A stretch of DNA of 64,000 bases from Antedon mediterranea (Eukaryota > Echinodermata > Crinoidea > Comatulida > Antedonidae): positions 31,067,001 through 31,131,000 of the forward strand of contig NC_092673.1 of assembly GCF_964355755.1 (NCBI RefSeq). The letters run 5' to 3'. Numbering within the stretch: position 1 is the first letter of the stretch; every line of letters begins with the position of its first letter. The notes under the pieces are model-generated. The model did not search any database and was not told where the DNA came from. It was given only the letters and a program-made list of their open reading frames with translations. A program made the translations under genes and the position numbers. This document shows, in pieces, positions 2 through 59,900 of this stretch.

Positions 2-175
2 AAACAACGCTTTCGTTTGTTAATACCTTTTGTAGGCCAAATTCTAAGGCCTATATTGAAAGTGTGTTTAAACAAGGCACAAGTTCTACAAATACAAACC
101 ACAGTAAACGCCTTTAAAAATAAACTTGATAAATTCATTGAAAGAAAATACAACAAATTTACTTTTATGGGATAA
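2..175 (+). pseudogene. Open 3' end of an unidentified reading frame cut by the window edge, possibly a LINE tail
   Basis: An open frame runs from the left edge (first codon at 2) for 57 codons to TAA at 173-175. The last part contains VNAFKNKLDKF followed by a lysine-rich tail, the kind of ending seen at the C-terminus of non-LTR reverse transcriptases (CR1/L2-like). The upstream half does not resemble such an enzyme to me, so this could equally be the last exon of a host gene or chance. Only about 170 bases are visible. Confidence 0.3.
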
Positions 176-1507
176 AGTGTATTGCAGAAGAATTTAAATC
201 AAGGAAACGAATGAAAAAAAAAACCCCCAAAAAACCAAAAAAAACATGCAGTGATGACTTGATGAAATTGGGAGGGCATGACATGTACCATACAGAAATG
301 TATGGTCTACTTACGAGCCCAACAAGACAGGTGATTACAGGTGAATAATAAAGGAATAATATGCAGTAGGGGTTAGAAGCCGAAACATACACAATGCACT
401 GGTAAGAATGACGTACCGGTGTTGTAGTTCCACATATGACAATATGTTCATTATCATAGGCAATATCCATAATACGGCATCTCATGTGTGACCCATGTGA
501 TGCCTGTAACATGGACGGTTAAAGCAGGGAAGAGTGAAGTACCCTTTTCTGGTTAGGCTCTGTGATGCAAACGTGAAATAATACTATGTATACGATTTGT
601 ATGGCAAGTCTGATCGGAATATCGCAATGAATGTCAAATGGATTAATTCTTCCACGTCATCTTTTAATATTCGAATTAAATTAAAAAGACAGCTTAGGTC
701 ACTACTGTACCGTAGATAGAAAGATCAAGTTGATATACTCTTTAAAATGCGACGTGAATAAGTACCCCTTTTGTCTTCAGAACAACCCTCTTTTGTATAG
801 TGTTAAAAATCGCTTAATCCAAAGTCACCACTATCATCGACCGTTTAAACTATTTAAAAATCTTTTAAAAGTTAACATGTCAATTAAGATTTAGCTTTGC
901 CTTCACTTCTGTTATCGAATCGTTTAGGTAGAAAAGATTTAAGATAGAAAAAAGTCCATCGATCGTCTTTGTCCGATTACAGGGATTATCCCTTTTTGTA
1001 TGTTTACTGTTATTTCAGGATACCACGACAGACAAATAAAAGTGTCTTCTTGAAATCATCGGTAGTATCATCATATAGCCGCGAGTTACTTATCAAATCC
1101 GACGATTTCGCTTTTCCAGTAAACTTTTTTTGTAAACGAGTATCATTCAATTCAAAGAACAACAATGGCAAGAGATAGTAAAAGAAAATTGACGAAGGCA
1201 GATCCCAAAAAGATTTGAATCTTGTCACGGGATTTCTTTACAAATTTAGTTAAAAAAATAGAACATTTAGAAACGAATAAATATAAGTAAAGTTAATAAA
1301 TAAATTTAACAAAAAAAAAAAATTAATATAATACCAGTAGATAAAAGTTTGGAAAAAAAGTAAAAAATGATGAACAGAGAAAAGTACAGCTGCAGGGCAT
1401 AGAACGAATATGAAGACAAAATGAATAATAAAATCTAGCAAGTCACGGAACATGAAACAACGACCATATCAAACAGATCGATTTAGTAATGAGACAACAA
1501 TCATTTC

Positions 1508-1855
1508 GGATGAGCTCTCTTGATAGAGATTAATTCACTTAATTTATCCTTTTATACTACTACTGTTGATATAAAGTTTGTGGTACACCATGTATATTAG
1601 TTCTGAAAAGAACTGTTGAGTTTCTCGACGTTTCGATCAATTTGCTTTGATCGTCCTCATGAGTGAGGACTACTACTACAGTACTACAGTACTATATTTT
1701 TCTTAATGAATTATACAATTAATTAAAACATATTGACTAAAACTAAACGGGTGTCATTTCTGATGAGCTATCTTGATACAGATTAATTTACTTAATTTAC
1801 TGCTTACATAACTACTTATATTTTTCTTAATGAATTATAGAATTAATTAAAACCA
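1508..1855. repeat. Diverged local direct duplication flanking a short insertion
   Basis: Two blocks repeat about 255 bp apart. GATGAGCTCTCTTGATAGAG at 1508 returns as a near match at about 1763. TTTTTCTTAATGAATTATA near 1697 returns near 1819. The hammerhead-like mini-element lies in the first unit only, so it probably inserted after the duplication. Confidence 0.6.
1566..1667 (-). mobile_element. ~100-bp mini-element with hammerhead-like motif (copy 1)
   Basis: Read on the - strand this matches the copy at 5476-5578 over its whole length with few differences. It has the stem GATCAA/TTGATC, GAAACGTCGAG, the small hairpin AGTTCT/AGAACT and a GGTGTACC segment. The core here reads CATGAGGA instead of CCTGAGGA. 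Flanks on both sides are CTACTACT-rich, which may be a target duplication or just low-complexity sequence. Confidence 0.6.
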
Positions 1856-2241
1856 GTCTCTTCTCTGATTAAAACATAATAATTTACAGTTAGTATTTAA
1901 AATATGCATTAATATTATTTTTTTTAAATGTAATTGATGATGGCTATGGTAATATTTTTTTATAAACTGATAAATACTTTTAGAATAAAGTGTCCAAAAT
2001 AATATACACGGTGTACTAACTTTTAATTACTTTATTAATTTATATAACTGCTAAATACTTCAGAACAAAATCTCAAAAAGAACATGGAGTTTACTCCATG
2101 AAAAGACTTGACAAGCAGTTGCGAGTTATTGTAAACATGTCATTAGACGAAGCGTGTACGATTAAAATCTTTTCCGTTTTTTTGACATCTACATTTTGAA
2201 ATATTTACATAGCCGTGGAAAACCTACCATTTTGATAAGCC

Positions 2242-2248
2242 TATAAAA
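2242..2248 (+). promoter_or_regulatory. Candidate TATA box of the LIM-homeobox gene
   Basis: TATAAAA sits in a GC-richer context (CCTATAAAACGCGGG), about 360 bp upstream of the first in-frame ATG at 2607. Initiation about 30 bp downstream would fall near 2270 and leave a 5' leader of about 335 bp. Nothing in the sequence proves use, and a leader with introns is also possible. Confidence 0.35.
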
Positions 2249-2606
2249 CGCGGGTATTCAACAAGCAGATTGCATTCATAAAAGGTTTAAAGAAACACCC
2301 ATGGACTCGTAAGTAAGTGTGAACTGTCTCTATGAAACAAAAGCATTGAGACAGACTACAAACCCGTACAAAAGCTTTCCACAAATAAGAACAATTGAGC
2401 ATTTCATTCTTACGTCATTTTGATTGACAGGCAATGCCATTTAAAATAATAAGACATAAGACGCCGTGAAGGCGTGGCTTCGTTCACAGAGTTTCCTATT
2501 TGTCGATGTGAACACATGATAATTCCATTGGTTAAACGCTTCAAAAGTGTCCCTGGCGGACACGGACGAGAAATCCGTGTGTAGATCGTACACAAAACAA
2601 ACTTAT

Positions 2607-2768
2607 ATGACATCATACGAACAACACATGAGGATTCATTCATCTAAGGAAAGTTTAGGATCAAGTATTTATCCAATGCTGGGCACTCTAGGCAGTGGCA
2701 ATGTGGTTATTAAAACAGAGCCTGGCTCGGTTGAAGATCAGGATACGAGTGACGACGAAAGCATGTCG
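2607..2768 (+). CDS. Lhx6/8 (Awh): Lhx6/8 exon 1, N-terminal region
   Basis: This exon encodes 54 residues before the LIM domains. They are low in similarity to known proteins and end in an acidic stretch (EDQDTSDDESMS). The donor is TCG|GTAAGT, phase 0. The start is the first ATG in the frame. Its context is weak (T at -3), and a second in-frame ATG follows at 2628. A IKTEPGS-type stretch resembles a sumoylation consensus (IKTE); this is pattern only. Confidence 0.75.
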
Positions 2769-5700
2769 GTAAGTTGCTTATCTTTGAGTCATGTTTACCA
2801 TAAGTGAAATAAGGAGGCAAACAAGACTGCCTCCTCTCATAGTTGTTATATGTGATTCATCTGTTTGTTTAGATGTGTTGGGCTTGAAACAATGTGGTAA
2901 AATAAAGAATTCCGTGTATTTATAATACGTATATCAAAGAAAGAAGCTCTACTAAAAGTATTAAACCGAAATGTACAGACATTGTTAGTTGTTGTCAGTT
3001 GTTATATTGTCAGGAAGAAATACGTTTTTGATATGTGTGAGTCATATGTTTGTTTAAAAGTGTTGAGTTTTGAACTTGAAACAATTTGATAAGGTAAAGA
3101 ATTCATGTGTTTATAATACGTATATCAAAGAAAGAAACTCTACTAAAGGTTTAACCCGAAATTTATTATTATTTATTATGATGTTATTAATATCATGGTA
3201 CTCTGAACAAAATTCAACTAAACGCAAGTTATCGTGTCAAGAAGAAATAAGCAAATGTCTTTATGGCCGGGTCAAAACCGCCACGATAGTGCTGTACCTC
3301 CAATGGACCTTCACAACTTTTAACAATTCTCCGTCGAATGACGACGTATTTTTGTTAGTAACGGTCGCCTAAGAGTTTCTAATGCTCTAAATAAATAATC
3401 TAGGCCTAGGCCTACTCATATGCTTTTATTGTAAGACACGAAATTACCTAACTGTTAGTATTTATTTATTTATTTCCAAACCCAACCAACAGCAAAATAA
3501 ATTCGCCAATAACAGGAGGGTAAGTACCAATGCTTCTTATGGAAATGAAATTTAGTTTTAAGATAAAAATAAACCGTTGTTGTAAATATTATTTCAAAAT
3601 GTTAATTAAATTGGTTCATGGAGTAAACCTCATTTTTACATTAACAATTCTACCAAACCTTTACAGTTTTGTAAACATTAAATTCACATATTATTTGAAA
3701 ATTCAATCATAATTTAGAAGTCTTCATTTTTCTTCATTTAAACAACCGACATGATACAATTACACTCTACCTATTAACCACGTATCTAAATTGAGTTATT
3801 GTATTAATATTATTGAATATGTCTACAAATACTTATACACAATCGACACTGTCGAGGCATTCTGAACTTTGCTTTAAATCTTTTTCTTTACTCCATTTAC
3901 TAAATTACAAACAACAATACATTTTGCACTCTACCTTTGCTGTCTGTATTTATCTATATATTTACTATATATCTGTAATTTAACCACATTTACTAATTGT
4001 ATTAATAAACATTAAATAATAGTTTGAATCGAAATTGTAGGAAAGATGAATAAAAACCAAAAGTAAGGATTCTGCACTCAGCAGGAAATAGTAAAGTAAC
4101 AAACTTTATTTGCTTTCGATACTTTTCGTTTGGTTTTGTTACATTTTTCCCCATTTCGTTACATTTGTTTTAATTTCGTTACATTTGTTTTATTTCGTTA
4201 CATTTGTTTTAATTTCGTTACATTTGTTTTAATTTTGTTACATTTTGTTTAATTTCGTTATATTCTGTTCCATTTCATTTAATTTCGTTACATTTTGTTT
4301 CATTTCGTTACATTTCGTTTCATTCACTACTTTGGTAACAAACATTGCAACTGTCAAAAAATATATGATTAAAATTAAAAAACGTTAAAACTTTTCCTTT
4401 GTTCACAGTCCGTTTTTATTATACCATCAAAACATTCATAGATTTCTGGTTACCACGTCATCTTAAAACTTAATACATTTTTTAGATTGTAAGACAAAGC
4501 CCACATTTATGAGTAAAAGCGGTGTAGTAATGGACATGCCGGTTATAAAAACTATAAAGTTTTACTGACTTTTTTTATTACATTTAACAACAAAAAAGTG
4601 CGATTCATTGTTGATTAAAATTGACCCTTTGCGTTTTATCTCTCATTAGTTAAACTAAAAGCTATACTCGTTGCCGTTTCTTAGTACTGCCTTCACTGAC
4701 CTACAAAGTGTATGTATGACACTGATATTTGATATAAAAAAGAAAGAAGAAAAAAACCTAATAAAAACTGATTAGAAGTCGTAGCTTATGATTTTAATTA
4801 CTGAAGTTCTTAAGTATGTTGGTATGTTGTTGTAGGATTATTATTAATTTCTTACTGTATTTCGGTATTAAATTCAGAATTATCGTAACTATATAGTTGT
4901 TTTTAAAACGAATGTATTATGGCAGTGTTTTTTTTTATGGTAGAGAATACCAATTTGATATTATAGAGACACAACACAAAGTGTACTTAATAACGGCCCT
5001 GGTTCTTTATTGAAGACTATTGTTTTGTGCTAAGTCAAGTTTCACATTCTATTCCAGGCGCGCCTACTTATTTTTATAACCGCCTTAGTAGGTCTAACCA
5101 TTCTTGATTGAACATTACCGGAGTAGTTCTACTACTACAGGTTATCTTATATATAATTTACATTATCATTTTTCTCTTTCAGTCCGATGTTGATGAATGT
5201 GAGGGGTGCGGAGATCCTATATCGGATCGGTTCTTCTTGAAAGTTGGTCTTCACTCCTGGCATACCGATTGTCTGCATTGCTGCATGTGCACCTGTAGCC
5301 TCAGCGGTCATCATGCATGTTACTTCAAAGATGGACAGGTGTATTGTAAACTTGATTATACTAGGTAAGTTTTATGAAGTATGTTTTCATACGTGTTTGA
5401 TCTAAAAAATGACTGGGTAATAATGAGAAGCGCTTTTACGAATTGTACAATAAGCGCTATATAAGAACAAATATTCTCACTCCTGAGGACGATCAAAGCA
5501 TATTGATCGAAACGTCGAGAAACTCAACAGTTCTTTTCAGAACAAATATACGTGGTGTACCGCAAACTTTATATCATCAGAACAAATATTACTATTAAGT
5601 ATTTATTTATTTATTTCAACAATATTTGCAGATCATTAACAATACAAATTAAATTAAAATAAATATAGGCCTAATTTATAAAGAAAAAGGCACAAACAAA

Positions 5701-8700
5701 TTAGAATAACAAATTAAATGAATTAAATTATTGACCATCTCGGAAGAAAAGATAGGGAAAAGGAAGCAACTAAACAAGAAGATGGTTCTTGGGCAGGAAT
5801 TTGATATTTGATAATGTAAAAACGAAAGTAGAAAATAAATAATATTAATAATACGCATACAGTGTTAAGAGTTTAAACCCGTTTTAGTTTTATATAATAA
5901 TATTTACTTTTATTATTAATTAAAAACCTACATTTTATAAAACATTGTACGGCTGGTAAATATGAAGGTACCAATTCACACGCATTCTTTTAATGTACAA
6001 AACAGCAACGTTTTATGATGATAAAAAAAAAGCTCAGCTAAGTTAGGCCTAAACAGTTTATTATCGGAATTCCACCCGACACTCAGTGCTGTATCTCCAC
6101 ATATGACAATATTTTCCCAGTATGGTATCCAGTTTTGTATCATGTAAGGGAAGGGTTAGGTCTATGATATTAGGAGATTCATATGAAACACGTGTGACTG
6201 TGTATCACGGTATTTTCATATGATACTTGTTTATTTTTGTGTTGTTGAAATTTGGATACTTTTTATTGTAAGGTAATCCATCTCCTTCTTTTGTTAATTT
6301 CCCCGAGAGATGATGATGATGATACTGATAGATAGGCCTACATTCCAATTAAAATCGGATCGGAACTTTTTTACTTAAAATATATGAAAAAGACACTCAC
6401 TTCTTGGGTTTAAATAAAGCCCATCAAGTAAGTGCTCTTAAACACATAATTGGTTTGTCAAACTTTTCCAATGCTAACAGTCAATTGGTATTGATTACCT
6501 TATAAAGTCATTATAAATGTCAATGGATTGTATTTATCTAGGCTTTTGTTCACTTAACATAATCATTTGTTTTTATCCAGTTTTATTGAATTCTACGCGT
6601 AAACAATCCACTGCCTTTAGGCCTATGTAAGCGGTACTTCCAAGTTGCTGTATCGATTTAGAGACCTTTATAACGTTTTTCAAAAGCTAAATAAAATAGA
6701 TTAGGTATTTAAATCTGTCTGATAATGCAGCATTGTACCCTACACTTACAGAATCGATAAATTCTTTGGTAAATTTAAAAACTGGTGCAGTCAGTCCGTT
6801 CGAAATAATCATCTTAACTTTGTCCATGATGTGCTCAGTTTTTAAAATAACGTAAGAAAATAGTGTTTTTTTTCTTTAAAATCCAATCCTCAAGGAAGAG
6901 ATAAGACCGAATTTTCTTCATTTGAACTTTTTAACATTAGTGCCTGTTTAAGCAAAAAGATTAATAAATGTCAGAATTGCATTCTGGTCTAGAGGCTGGC
7001 CTTATTTATTATGTCTTATTGTTAACATTTCAAAACATTCGGGTGATTATAAAAGTAGTATTTTCCTTAACTCATTTTAAAGCAGGACATTTTTTCCTTT
7101 TTATATAGAGAATTCGGCACAAAATGTGCAAAATGCAATAGAGGAATTCAGTCGAGTGATTGGGTAAGACGAGCCAAAGACCACGTGTTCCATTTAGCAT
7201 GCTTTGCGTGCGACAACTGCAAACGGCAGCTTTCAACTGGTGAAGAATTCGCTATGATGGACAACCGGGTTCTTTGTAAAGCACACTATATGGAATTAAT
7301 CGAAACGTCTTTCAAAGTTGGAACAAGTGACGGAGGTAGTTATACTTTTATGTGTTAAGCTCTCTTTAAACTTTATGTGACAAAAAAAAATGATGACGTG
7401 ATGTGGAGACAGTGATGTCACATTACTACCATATTTGGGCACATCACAATTGTCACATAAAGTTTGATAGTGTAGACACAGCTTTAGATAAGCAACTTGG
7501 TTTGTGTTTTACCCGTCATCATGGCCGAGAATTACTGAACTCGGCATTTTCCCTTACGAAGAACCTGATCTAACATAGGCTGGGCGTATTGCAAAGGGAA
7601 GGAAGGTCCCGCAGCTCGAACGCTGCGAGTCATTGTCGTGTGGTCGAGGAGGAAAGAATACAGTAAGACATTTCGATAAAGTGCTATTATAGATAATCTA
7701 CACGTGATGATTAAACTCTTATATAAATGAAAATAAGTTGAAAATATTGAAAATAAGTTTAAGTCAGCTTATTTGAATTTTGATAGAGAAGCCTAGGCCA
7801 CATATAATATTTATTAAAATGCGTTTTGTTTTAACAGACAGTGCATACGACTCATCATCCGGGCAATCACGAATGGCCCATCGTCCTAAGCGTGTCCGCA
7901 CTACATTCTCCGAGGACCAGTTAGAAGTTTTACAGGTGAATTTCCAGGTGGACAGTAATCCGGATGGACAGGACCTGGAACGCATTGCTAATATCACTGG
8001 ACTCAGCAAACGCGTTACCCAAGTATGGTTTCAAAACTCAAGAGCCCGCCAAAAGAAATTTCAGACTCGTAGTCATAGTGAAGGCTCACCATCAAGTCGT
8101 AAGTTAATATTGTTAATATTATTTTTCCTATTATTTATTACTACTATACTGTTGTAAATGTTTGGATAAACTCTAAACTTCTCAGAAAATTGAAGTCTAG
8201 TTATGTTGTGTTTTCTTGCGTAGATCGTTTATTGTCAAACCGTTTCCATAGTCAACTGGTTTTCAAAATGATGACTTGCAATGATAAAAAACAGACATCG
8301 GAGAAATATAACAAAAATTTTAATTTCTTTATATATTGTGTTTTAATAATCAACAAATAAAAATGAAAGATTTTTAAAGTATTGAATATAATAGTCAGAA
8401 CACGATGCATCGCCTTAGGTAGATTTGTGCATCTAACAAATTGAATTTACATAATGTTATTAAGCCTACAAATACTGATTGTTAATAATATGGTAATCTT
8501 GTAATGTTAACGCAATGACCACACTACCACAATGTCTCATAATTAATAACCTGCCTAGATTATCAACTTTTGAACTTTAGCGTGTTTTCGACTTTAACGA
8601 ATAAGTGACGCAAGTACGTCTAAATTGCTCTATAAAAAAAAAATTCATAAACACTACTATTTCTATCTTTCAGCTTCTAAATCTCCATGTGGAAAATGTG

Positions 8701-46057: not shown

Positions 46058-46530
46058 CCCTCCATTGACTACCTTTTCCCCACCGACTACCTCCTTCCCA
46101 CCGACTACCTCCTCCCCACCGATTACCTCCTCCCCACCGATTACCTCATCCCCACCGATTACCACCTCGCCACCGATTACCACCTCCTCGCCGATTACCT
46201 CCTCCTCACCAATTACCTCCTCCTCACCGACTACCTCCTGCCCACAGACTACCTCCTCCCTAACCGATTACCTCCTCCCTAACCGACTACCTCCTCTCCC
46301 CACCGACTACCTCCTCTCCCCACCGACTACCTCCTCCCCACCGACTACCTCCTGCCCACCGACTACCTCCTGCCCACCGACTACCTCCTCCCCACCGACT
46401 ACCTCCTCCCCACCGACTACCTCCTCCCCACCTACTACCTCCCCACCTACTACCTCCTGCCCACCGATTACCTCCTGCCCACCGACTACCTCCTCCCCAC
46501 CGACTGCCTTCTCCCCACCGACTACTACCC
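46058..46530. repeat. 18-bp minisatellite
   Basis: About 26 head-to-tail variants of GACTACCTCCTCCCCACC. Because the unit is a multiple of three and lacks stops, it stays open in several frames on both strands, giving proline/threonine-rich or glycine-rich pseudo-proteins. No flanking coding sequence supports translation. Confidence 0.9.
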
Positions 46531-47479: not shown

Positions 47480-48480
47480 TTTCTTATAGTCCATAACACG
47501 TAGTAATAGTAATTCATTCTCCACACAACATAAAACAATAAAGAAAATGATTATAAATCAACGTAGCATAATTTAACATCAGTTGTAAAAAAGGAGACCA
47601 TAAGAGCGGGTTCACACTGTAACAATTTGTTTGCTTTAATTAGTGTACTAATTGTATGTATTATATTAGTGACTGTTTCACACTAAAATATAACGTGTTT
47701 GCATCCATTTGATGTTGAGAAGTTTTAGTTATTATTTATAGTCCACAGCATAAAACACTACAGAAAATTAATATAAATCAACGTAACGTAATTTAACATC
47801 AGTTGTAAAGAGCGGATTCACACTATAACAGTTTATGTACTAATTGTATTATATTAGTGACTGTTTCACACTAAAATGTGTTTGCGTCAAGTGTACTAGC
47901 TACTTTAGGCGCGTTCACACTGTGAACCCAATGTAACGTAATTTAACAGCAGTTGTAAAGAGCGGATTCACACTATTTCATTTTTTTCATTTATCTTTTT
48001 ATTTCGGAATATCATGGTGACATAATATTATATCCATAGCAAAAGAGAGAAAAAAAAATCTTAATCTAACAACAACTATAACAGTTTGTGTACTAATTGT
48101 ATTATATTAGTGACTGTTTCACACTAAAATGTGTTTGCGTCAAGTGTACTAGCTACTTTAGGCGCGTTCACACTGTGAACCCAATGTAACGTAATTTAAC
48201 ATCAGTTATAAAGAGCGGATTCACACTATAACAGTTTGTGTACTAATTGTATTATATTAGTGACTGTTTCACACTAAAATGTGTTTGCGTCAAGTGTACT
48301 AGCTACTTTAGGCGCGTTCACACTGTGAAATTATTGTAACATAATTTAACAGCATTTGTAAAGAGCGGATTCACACTATAACAGTTTGTGTACTAATTGC
48401 ATTATATTAGTGACTGTTTCACACTAAAATTTGTTCTAGCTACTTTAGGCGCGTTCACACTGTGAAACACACCACACTGT
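47480..48480. repeat. ~150-bp satellite array, five copies
   Basis: GTGACTGTTTCACACTAAAA recurs at 47669, 47857, 48110, 48260 and 48410. The last two intervals are exactly 150 bp; the second interval is 253 because of a 98-bp insertion plus its duplication. Each unit also has GGCGCGTTCACACTGTGAA, CGTAATTTAACAGCAGTTGT and GAGCGGATTCACACTAT. The first unit is longer and more diverged. Confidence 0.85.
47977..48074 (-). mobile_element. LINE 3'-tail insertion inside the satellite
   Basis: A 98-bp insert is flanked by ACTAT at 47972-47976 and 48075-48079. On the - strand it ends ATTCCGAAATAAAAAGATAA and then ATGAAA repeats. The same tail (ATTCCGAAATAAAAGATTGA) occurs on the + strand near 59098. 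Confidence 0.6.
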
Positions 48481-59485: not shown

Positions 59486-59900
59486 CCCCTTCTCTCTCTC
59501 TCTCTCCTCCTGTCCTTCCCCCCCCCCCCCCTCTCTCTCTGTCTATAAATCTGTTTTATAATAATTATTAATAATGTATAAAAATTACTATATAGTTATA
59601 ATATATAGTATAATTATGATTATTTATGTACGCTGGCAAGATAAGGAAGATTCTGGATTCAGTTCTTTTCTGTGTCCCTGTTCATCTCCCCCCCCCCCCC
59701 TCCCCCTCTCTTTCTCTCTCTCTCTCACCCCTCCCCCTATCAATCTGTTTTATAATATTAATAATGTATAAAAACTACTATATAGTTATAATATATAGTA
59801 TAATTATGATTATTTATGTACGCTGGCATGATAAGGAAGATTCTGGATTCAGTTCTTTTCTGTGTCTCTGTTCATCTCCCCCCCCCCCCTCCCTCTCTCT
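59486..59900. repeat. Tandem duplication (~194-bp period) with poly-C/TC tracts
   Basis: CTGTTTTATAATA begins at 59551 and again at 59745. Each unit contains ACGCTGGCA, GATTCTGGATTCAGTTCTTT and a long poly-C followed by CT repeats. The unit-to-unit identity is high outside the C/CT tracts. Confidence 0.85.

What the first reader, a model, noticed from the sequence alone, without database searches (positions are those of the whole stretch)
5464..5590. 103-bp mini-element with a 12-bp target duplication and a hammerhead-ribozyme-like core
Seen: an exact AGAACAAATATT duplication flanks a 103-bp insert containing CTGAGGA, a six-pair stem, GAAAC-GTC and a CTC/GAG outer stem. A near full-length second copy is at 1566-1667 in reverse. 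Known: Penelope-like elements carry minimal hammerhead motifs, often active only as dimers because stem III is tiny. Here ACGT in GAAACGTC is self-complementary and could pair between two copies. Inference: this is a very short non-autonomous retroelement mobilised through a Penelope-like machinery. The extra base after CTGAGGA departs from the standard hammerhead.
Basis: partly seen in the sequence, partly recalled or inferred. Interest (0 to 1): 0.72.

Follow-up and report, generated by a model that had tools for sequence, protein, structure and literature searches.

The report
Penelope retroelement end fragments, inserted two-ended
The 103-bp insert is the non-coding end of a Penelope-type retrotransposon copied into a new place, and its many relatives in the same genome suggest that this element often copies one RNA sequence twice, once onto each strand of a cut target.

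Summary
The insert and its exact 12-bp duplication are real. It is not a separate mini-element class but the hammerhead-bearing end segment (pseudo-LTR, pLTR) of a Penelope-like element (PLE). The same sequence lies downstream of broken GIY-YIG-type frames in 5 of 5 PLE loci cut for this (4 chosen with a unit already known nearby) and aligns with the anole Poseidon pLTR.

In 82 of 95 instances the 3' end falls at one of two points 35 nt apart, matching the two internal RT starts (optional "tail") of the anole PLE. The largest class of single copies (29 of 74) begins at an Inr-like TCACTCC with a TATA-like motif about 31 nt upstream. I read the 103-mer as a run-off copy from RNA 5' end to first RT start. 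Five of 74 begin exactly at the predicted hammerhead cut.

New here is a rule for head-to-head inverted pairs (66). Most behave as one insertion (outer duplications in 38 of 65; 0.95 expected). Both arms carry the same variant at site 74 (45 of 45). Of 43 pairs with callable ends 41 have exactly one tail, none two. This favours two-ended target-primed copying over published self-priming. Ribozyme activity and promoter are untested.

The parts
5464..5475 (.). left target-site duplication AGAACAAATATT
   Evidence: control
5476..5578 (+). 103-bp PLE pLTR fragment, unit positions 1-103 (putative RNA 5' end to first RT start), without the 35-nt tail
5579..5590 (.). right target-site duplication AGAACAAATATT
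   Evidence: control
5477..5483 (+). Inr-like TCACTCC; the largest class of single copies begins within a few nt of it
   Evidence: label Inr by resemblance to the consensus (recalled) and to the Adineta pLTR (PMC3846280 passages)
5480..5482 (+). hammerhead stem I, 5' strand CTC
   Evidence: sequence; not in the predicted minimum-energy fold
5483..5489 (+). hammerhead core CTGAGGA
   Evidence: sequence; aligned with anole PLE
5491..5508 (+). hammerhead stem II GATCAA/TTGATC with loop AGCATA
   Evidence: sequence; predicted by fold as seven pairs, the seventh using the core G at 5509
5509..5516 (+). GAAACGTC; predicted cleavage after 5516 (unit position 41)
   Evidence: sequence; 5 of 74 single copies begin at the next base
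5517..5519 (+). hammerhead stem I, 3' strand GAG
   Evidence: sequence
1565..1667 (-). second, independent 103-bp copy, core mutated (CTGAGGA to ATGAGGA)
1555..1563 (.). target duplication TACTACTAC of the second copy (left)
1671..1679 (.). target duplication TACTACTAC of the second copy (right; 3 nt from the element)

Best explanation
The 103-bp insert is a solo copy of the 5'-most part of a Penelope-like element RNA. Shown: the sequence belongs to the pLTR of a PLE in this genome, the insert has a target duplication, and most family 3' ends fall at two fixed places 35 nt apart that match the two internal RT start sites of the anole PLE. Inferred: a Pol II-type start in the pLTR (TATA-like box about 31 nt upstream of TCACTCC) makes an RNA that begins with the hammerhead. 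The RT-endonuclease cuts AT-rich DNA, primes at RT start 1 inside the 5' pLTR of that RNA rather than in a downstream one, and runs off the RNA 5' end, giving 103 bp (about 138 bp from RT start 2). Often both target strands are primed and two cDNAs from the same template sequence, one from each start site, are joined head to head. In the window copy only one cDNA is present. Some templates had been cut by the hammerhead and give copies starting at the cut (inferred, small numbers).
For:: in 5 of 5 PLE loci cut for this (L025-L029; 4 chosen because hits already lay beside units, 1 without knowing) the unit lies downstream of the GIY-YIG-type frame on the same strand; the related L024 frame matches PF01541, 27.1 bits against cut-off 22.6; head+unit+tail aligns with the anole PLE template from -61 to +114 (score 59; 0 of 500 shuffles as good, best shuffle 56); its end coincides with the published RT start at ORF 111-118 (PMC11167929); 3' ends of 95 instances at -1..+4 (40) or +31..+35 (42), 13 elsewhere; of 74 single-arm copies with unique 3' flanks, 29 begin at -5..+4 and 5 exactly at 42 (3 of these 5 with a duplication); 66 head-to-head pairs after dropping two known duplicates; 41 of 43 callable with exactly one tail, 0 with two; both arms share the site-74 variant in 45 of 45 (permuted mean 23.8, maximum 35); outer duplications (score 9 or more) in 38 of 65 against 0.95 expected; in 11 of 41 one-tail pairs each arm holds sequence that the other lacks.
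Against: No RNA data: the transcription start is inferred from sequence and from copy ends. No intact full-length PLE with a 5' pLTR and a complete frame was found; the frames seen are broken 3' parts. Of 6 frames scanned in Pfam only one hit GIY-YIG and one RVT_1, the latter below cut-off (23.6 against 29.6); 4 hit nothing at E 0.01. No Rfam hammerhead model matched, and the predicted lowest-energy folds pair the core G and do not show the hammerhead. Parts of the anole alignment alone are weaker (tail part 4 of 500 shuffles as good, hammerhead part 1 of 500). In the anole PLE, hammerhead mutants did not affect insertion in vitro and no RNA reads began or ended at the cut (PMC11167929), which speaks against a role for cleavage. 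Two callable pairs have no tail (L086, L143); 22 of 65 edge-free pairs have at least one arm ending elsewhere. Variant sharing is not significant at site 76 (32 of 42; permutations reach 36) and weak at site 24 (22 of 23; permutations reach 22). The class at the cut is small and its search word begins at that base. Of single copies 18 of 74 start at -60 or further, so other RNA 5' ends or read-through exist.
Confidence: 0.72

Rival explanations
1. A true non-autonomous, SINE-like family: 103-bp loci are transcribed themselves and parasitise PLE enzymes.
For: A good number of copies have about these ends, and single copies often have a duplication (18 of 54 at score 9 or more against 0.8 expected; ends).
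Against: Copies share variable lengths of flanking pLTR sequence; the 103-mer lacks the TATA-like region upstream. Whether short copies form a lineage of their own was not tested with a tree.
Confidence: 0.12
2. 5' truncation because the reverse transcriptase stalls at the folded hammerhead.
For: 5' ends cluster near the hammerhead.
Against: An enzyme moving 3' to 5' would stop on the 3' side (unit about 42-50), but the main peak is on the 5' side (-5..+4: 29 of 74; 42: 5 of 74). Stalling could still explain the small class at 42.
Confidence: 0.15
3. Head-to-head pairs arise by self-priming (snap-back copying of one strand), as proposed for Adineta Penelope (PMC3846280, Discussion read).
For: Arms abut closely (median gap 3) and share the site-74 variant. 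In 21 of 41 one-tail pairs the tailed arm is the longer on both sides and could have served as template.
Against: In 11 of 41 one-tail pairs the tail-less arm reaches more than 5 nt further 5' while the tailed arm reaches further 3', so neither could be the template of the other. Tail-less ends also occur in single copies (25 with tail, 25 without, 5 unclear).
Confidence: 0.1
4. An animal retrozyme (hammerhead circular-RNA retroelement).
For: Small size, hammerhead-like core.
Against: Tandem neighbours are rare: 2 direct against 68 head-to-head; helix III missing; physical link to PLE frames.
Confidence: 0.03

Closest known systems
Poseidon PLE of Anolis carolinensis (PAc; PMC11167929, parts 1-3 of 4 read)
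   Same: pLTR with TATA-like stretch, TCAC, CTGAGGA...CGAAACGTC hammerhead, two RT starts, optional 30-40 bp tail between them; the stretch aligns; both target strands cut and extended in vitro.
   Different: There the ORF starts inside the hammerhead (ATG); here the usual letters are ACG and a stop follows in that frame, so the start must be elsewhere. That paper saw no strand difference in RT start in vitro, whereas here head-to-head insertions with callable ends nearly always show one of each. It found no RNA reads beginning or ending at the ribozyme cut.
Penelope families of Adineta vaga (PMC3846280; passages and Discussion read)
   Same: Inverted head-to-head pLTRs, target duplication around the whole insert, optional 31-bp tail on one of the inverted pLTRs, TATA box and Inr-like TCACT in the pLTR.
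   Different: Explained there by self-priming on an antisense template; here a count over 66 pairs points to two separate reverse transcriptions.
Minimal PLE hammerheads (reviewed in PMC6155905, passages read; the 2014 report itself is not held)
   Same: Core residues present, helix III and tertiary contacts missing.
   Different: Activity here untested.

Membership tests
Penelope-like element (PLE) | GIY-YIG endonuclease domain in the linked reading frame | tested here: met
   L024 frame PF01541, 27.1 bits, cut-off 22.6. Frames in L025-L029 are assigned by 66-89% protein identity to it; of these, L026:657-1127 and L027:4568-5041 did not themselves reach E 0.01 in Pfam, the GIY-YIG parts of L025, L028 and L029 were not scanned
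Penelope-like element (PLE) | telomerase-like reverse transcriptase | tested here: inconclusive
   one frame (L026:1554-1838) RVT_1 E 4.9e-5 but 23.6 bits, below cut-off 29.6; clade not tested
Penelope-like element (PLE) | pLTR with optional 30-40 bp tail between two RT starts | tested here: met
   bimodal 3' ends 35 nt apart, 82 of 95; alignment with the anole tail
Penelope-like element (PLE) | target duplications and inverted head-to-head pLTRs | tested here: met
Penelope-like element (PLE) | full unit pLTR-ORF-pLTR in (partial) tandem | tested here: inconclusive
   only 3' parts of the ORF followed by pLTR seen
Penelope-like element (PLE) | AT-rich target (ATT) preference | not tested
   ATT often precedes the 5' end (listing), but not counted against a control
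Hammerhead ribozyme | match to a curated covariance model | tested here: not met
   no Rfam hit in the window at gathering threshold nor any hammerhead family up to E 5 in 1200-6200
Hammerhead ribozyme | core residues CUGANGA/GAA/UH with stems I and II possible | tested here: met
   direct reading, anole alignment; the lowest-energy fold does not show it
Hammerhead ribozyme | helix III | tested here: not met
   only ACGU without a loop; usual for PLE hammerheads (PMC6155905 passages)
Hammerhead ribozyme | self-cleavage after GUC | not testable with these tools
   only an indirect footprint: 5 of 74 single copies begin at the base after GTC
Retrozyme | tandem units or circular RNA | tested here: not met
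   2 direct neighbours among 229 arms in 156 stretches; RNA not available

The most novel reading that the evidence does not exclude
PLE integration is two-ended: two enzyme units bound to one RNA prime opposite strands of a staggered cut, one at RT start 1 and the other at RT start 2, 35 nt apart. The two cDNAs end at the RNA 5' end (transcription start, or the hammerhead cut) or earlier and are joined head to head. The 103-bp mini-copies are products in which only one cDNA was made or kept, and the hammerhead leaves a readable genomic footprint.
Probability: 0.45. Interest if true: 0.76.

Novelty: new member of a known kind. Interest (0 to 1): 0.56.

Why it matters
[quoted passage not shown] The in vitro anole paper found two RT starts and cutting of both strands; in the parts read it does not connect them with the inverted pLTRs. 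In this one genome short copies show both ends of each event, and the counts (one tail per pair, one source variant per pair, a shared target duplication) make a specific model testable: a dimer reading one RNA from two fixed starts. Copies beginning exactly at the predicted ribozyme cut would, if confirmed, be genomic evidence that the ribozyme acts on templates, which the anole RNA reads did not show.

Tried and rejected
Rfam search of the window: no hammerhead; three other weak matches below their family thresholds. Search for other hammerhead families with CTGAHGA...CGAAACGTC: 26 hits against 4 in the control, most by eye the same family, so no cross-family covariation test was possible and stem II covariation remains untested. 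RNA fold of the monomer: z -1.31 and -1.89, not decisive, and not the hammerhead fold. and 20 further loci, to look for copies starting just past the hammerhead cut: 42 once, 43 twice, 46 once, 47 once, all in loci with a head-to-head pair; six of the 20 loci (L145, L151, L155, L158, L161, L163) are one old copy inside another dispersed repeat. Rows dropped before counts: L084 and L091 (duplicates of L043) from the pairs; L055 and L067 (duplicates) from the singles; L147 (arm touches the locus edge); loci longer than 2,000 bases (L021-L029) from the census. The 95 instances and the 40 were not freed of duplicates. Papers on the Penelope pLTR promoter, the 2021 PLE survey and the 2014 PLE hammerhead report were not held, so prior mention there cannot be excluded.

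Full report
Observation. The insert is as described: 103 bp at 5476-5578 between two exact AGAACAAATATT words, with a hammerhead-like core. A second copy lies in reverse at about 1565-1667 with a 9-bp duplication; its core reads ATGAGGA. Both are single-arm insertions 3.8 kb apart. The first lies about 100 bp past a LIM-domain exon (5207-5362 matches PF00412, 45.1 bits) that ends in AG|GTAAGT, so probably in an intron.

Genome. The window is part of a 354-Mb assembly of 18 contigs; the organism was not identified. The DNA search lists 50 matches from 1637 first-look candidates (40 scored), so copy number is only bounded. An exact 36-nt core occurs 118 times and a 27-nt part 297 times, with no hit for the reversed control words.

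What it belongs to. Flanks of 20 cut copies showed that many continue on both sides into shared sequence: upstream a head ending CCACTTATATTCCAAGTTTCCTGGACTTTCTGCATT, downstream the tail ATTTGATTTCGCCATGCAAACCTTCAAACAATATA. A GIY-YIG frame beside one copy (L024; PF01541 27.1 bits) led to further PLE loci. In five of these (L025-L029) the unit sits downstream of the GIY-YIG-type frame on the same strand; four were picked because hits already lay together, one without that knowledge. The frames are assigned by 66-89% identity to L024. Of 6 frames given to Pfam, one hit GIY-YIG, one hit RVT_1 below its cut-off, and four hit nothing at E 0.01. All frames seen are broken 3' parts. The assignment therefore rests on the endonuclease, the pLTR and the anole alignment: head, unit and tail align from -61 to +114 of the published template (score 59; 0 of 500 shuffles as good, best 56), including TATAT, TCAC, CTGAGGA, CGAAACGTC and the tail, which ends at the published RT start. 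Taken alone the tail part (4 of 500 shuffles as good) and the hammerhead part (1 of 500) are weaker (PMC11167929, parts 1-3 of 4 read).

Ends. The census has 95 instances with the 36-nt core: 91 of the 100 places listed (two in the window) and 4 of the 18 unlisted. Of these, 40 end within -1..+4 of unit position 103 and 42 at +31..+35; 13 end elsewhere. The reference stops at +35; that copies do not go on beyond it in common was judged only by eye from the printed flanks. The two points match the two RT starts. Of 142 instances with the 27-nt word, 74 are single-arm with unique 3' flanks. Their 5' ends are: -5..+4, 29; 5..14, 9; 15..40, 5; exactly 42, 5; -11..-6, 2; -59..-12, 6; -60 or further, 18, some of these limited by where the reference diverges. 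The main peak lies on an Inr-like TCACTCC with a TATA-like stretch about 31 nt upstream (CTTATATTCC exact in 15 of 22 copies that reach that far, TATAT in 19). The labels are by resemblance; no RNA was examined. Three of the five copies that begin at 42, the base after the predicted ribozyme cut, have a target duplication with 2-6 extra, mostly A, bases before the element (L112, L134, L136). Because the search word starts at base 42, copies starting later are not counted there. Among 20 further loci found by a word starting at base 49 there was one start each at 42, 46 and 47 and two at 43, all in paired loci.

Pairs. In 156 stretches (155 loci and the window) there are 229 arms; counting neighbours within 150 nt, 68 are head to head, 1 tail to tail and 2 direct. 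After dropping L084 and L091 as duplicates of L043, 66 pairs remain. Outer flanks of 65 (L147 touches an edge) show a duplication score of 9 or more in 38, against 0.95 expected from shuffled flanks; in the first 40, duplicates included, it was 21 against 0.8. So a pair is usually one event. At site 74 (C or T, not CpG) both arms agree in 45 of 45 pairs with a call in both (permuted mean 23.8, maximum 35 in 5000). At site 24 they agree in 22 of 23 (mean 17.1, maximum 22), which is weak, and at the CpG site 76 in 32 of 42 (mean 26.7, maximum 36), which is no support; later CpG decay may explain this. Tails: 41 pairs with exactly one tail, 2 with none (L086, L143), none with two, and 22 with at least one uncalled end. 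The chance of 41 or more of 44 (before L147 was dropped) at one half is 8e-10; one half is the tail rate in single copies, 25 with and 25 without, 5 unclear. By eye L143 has a shortened tail. In the wide-flank loci alone it is 24 with one tail, 1 with none, 12 with an uncalled end. In 11 of the 41 one-tail pairs the tail-less arm reaches more than 5 nt further 5' while the tailed arm reaches further 3', so neither arm can have been copied from the other; in 21 the tailed arm is the longer on both sides, and in 9 the 5' ends lie within 5 nt.

Mechanism. These facts fit two reverse transcriptions of one RNA sequence, primed on the two strands of a staggered cut, one from each RT start. The anole enzyme cuts and extends both strands and is modelled as a dimer (PMC11167929), but that paper saw no strand difference in start sites. 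It also found that hammerhead mutants did not affect insertion in vitro, that cleavage needed the protein, and that no RNA reads ended at the cut. The Adineta paper noted the tail on one of the inverted pLTRs and favoured self-priming on an antisense template (PMC3846280, passages and Discussion read). One RNA molecule or two sister RNAs cannot be told apart here. Single copies such as the window's would be events in which one cDNA was made or kept. The 103-bp size follows if the RNA begins near unit 1-4 and priming is at start 1.

Novelty. PLEs, their hammerheads, tails, inverted pLTRs and duplications are known. In the listings (open-access library only) and the papers read I did not see the one-tail rule counted or tied to two-ended priming; key papers are not held.

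Noticed in passing
window 5540-5550: The duplicated target word AGAACAAATAT also occurs inside the insert, where most copies seen read AGAACTAATAT (L005 reads as the window does); probably chance, unexplained.
   Followed up: partly
window 1501-1546 and 1754-1799: The reverse copy sits beside one of two similar (91%) local repeats; the other lacks it, a rough paralogous empty site.
   Followed up: partly
window 5207-5362: LIM-domain exon (PF00412, 45.1 bits) with an AG|GTAAGT donor about 100 bp upstream of the insert.
   Followed up: partly
window 46067-46525: About 25 copies of an 18-bp repeat GACTACCTCCTCCCCACC.
   Followed up: no
window 48075-48435 and 59543-59900: Tandem repeats of period 150 and 190 with about two copies, 94-95% matches.
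   Followed up: no
L145, L151, L155, L158, L161, L163: One old unit copy carried within another dispersed repeat, nearly identical flanks in all six.
   Followed up: no
L024 4801-5713: A longer head-to-head insertion: inverted pLTR, GIY-YIG frame part, then direct pLTR with an internal deletion, flanked by a TAAATCCTATT-like repeat seen by eye.
   Followed up: partly
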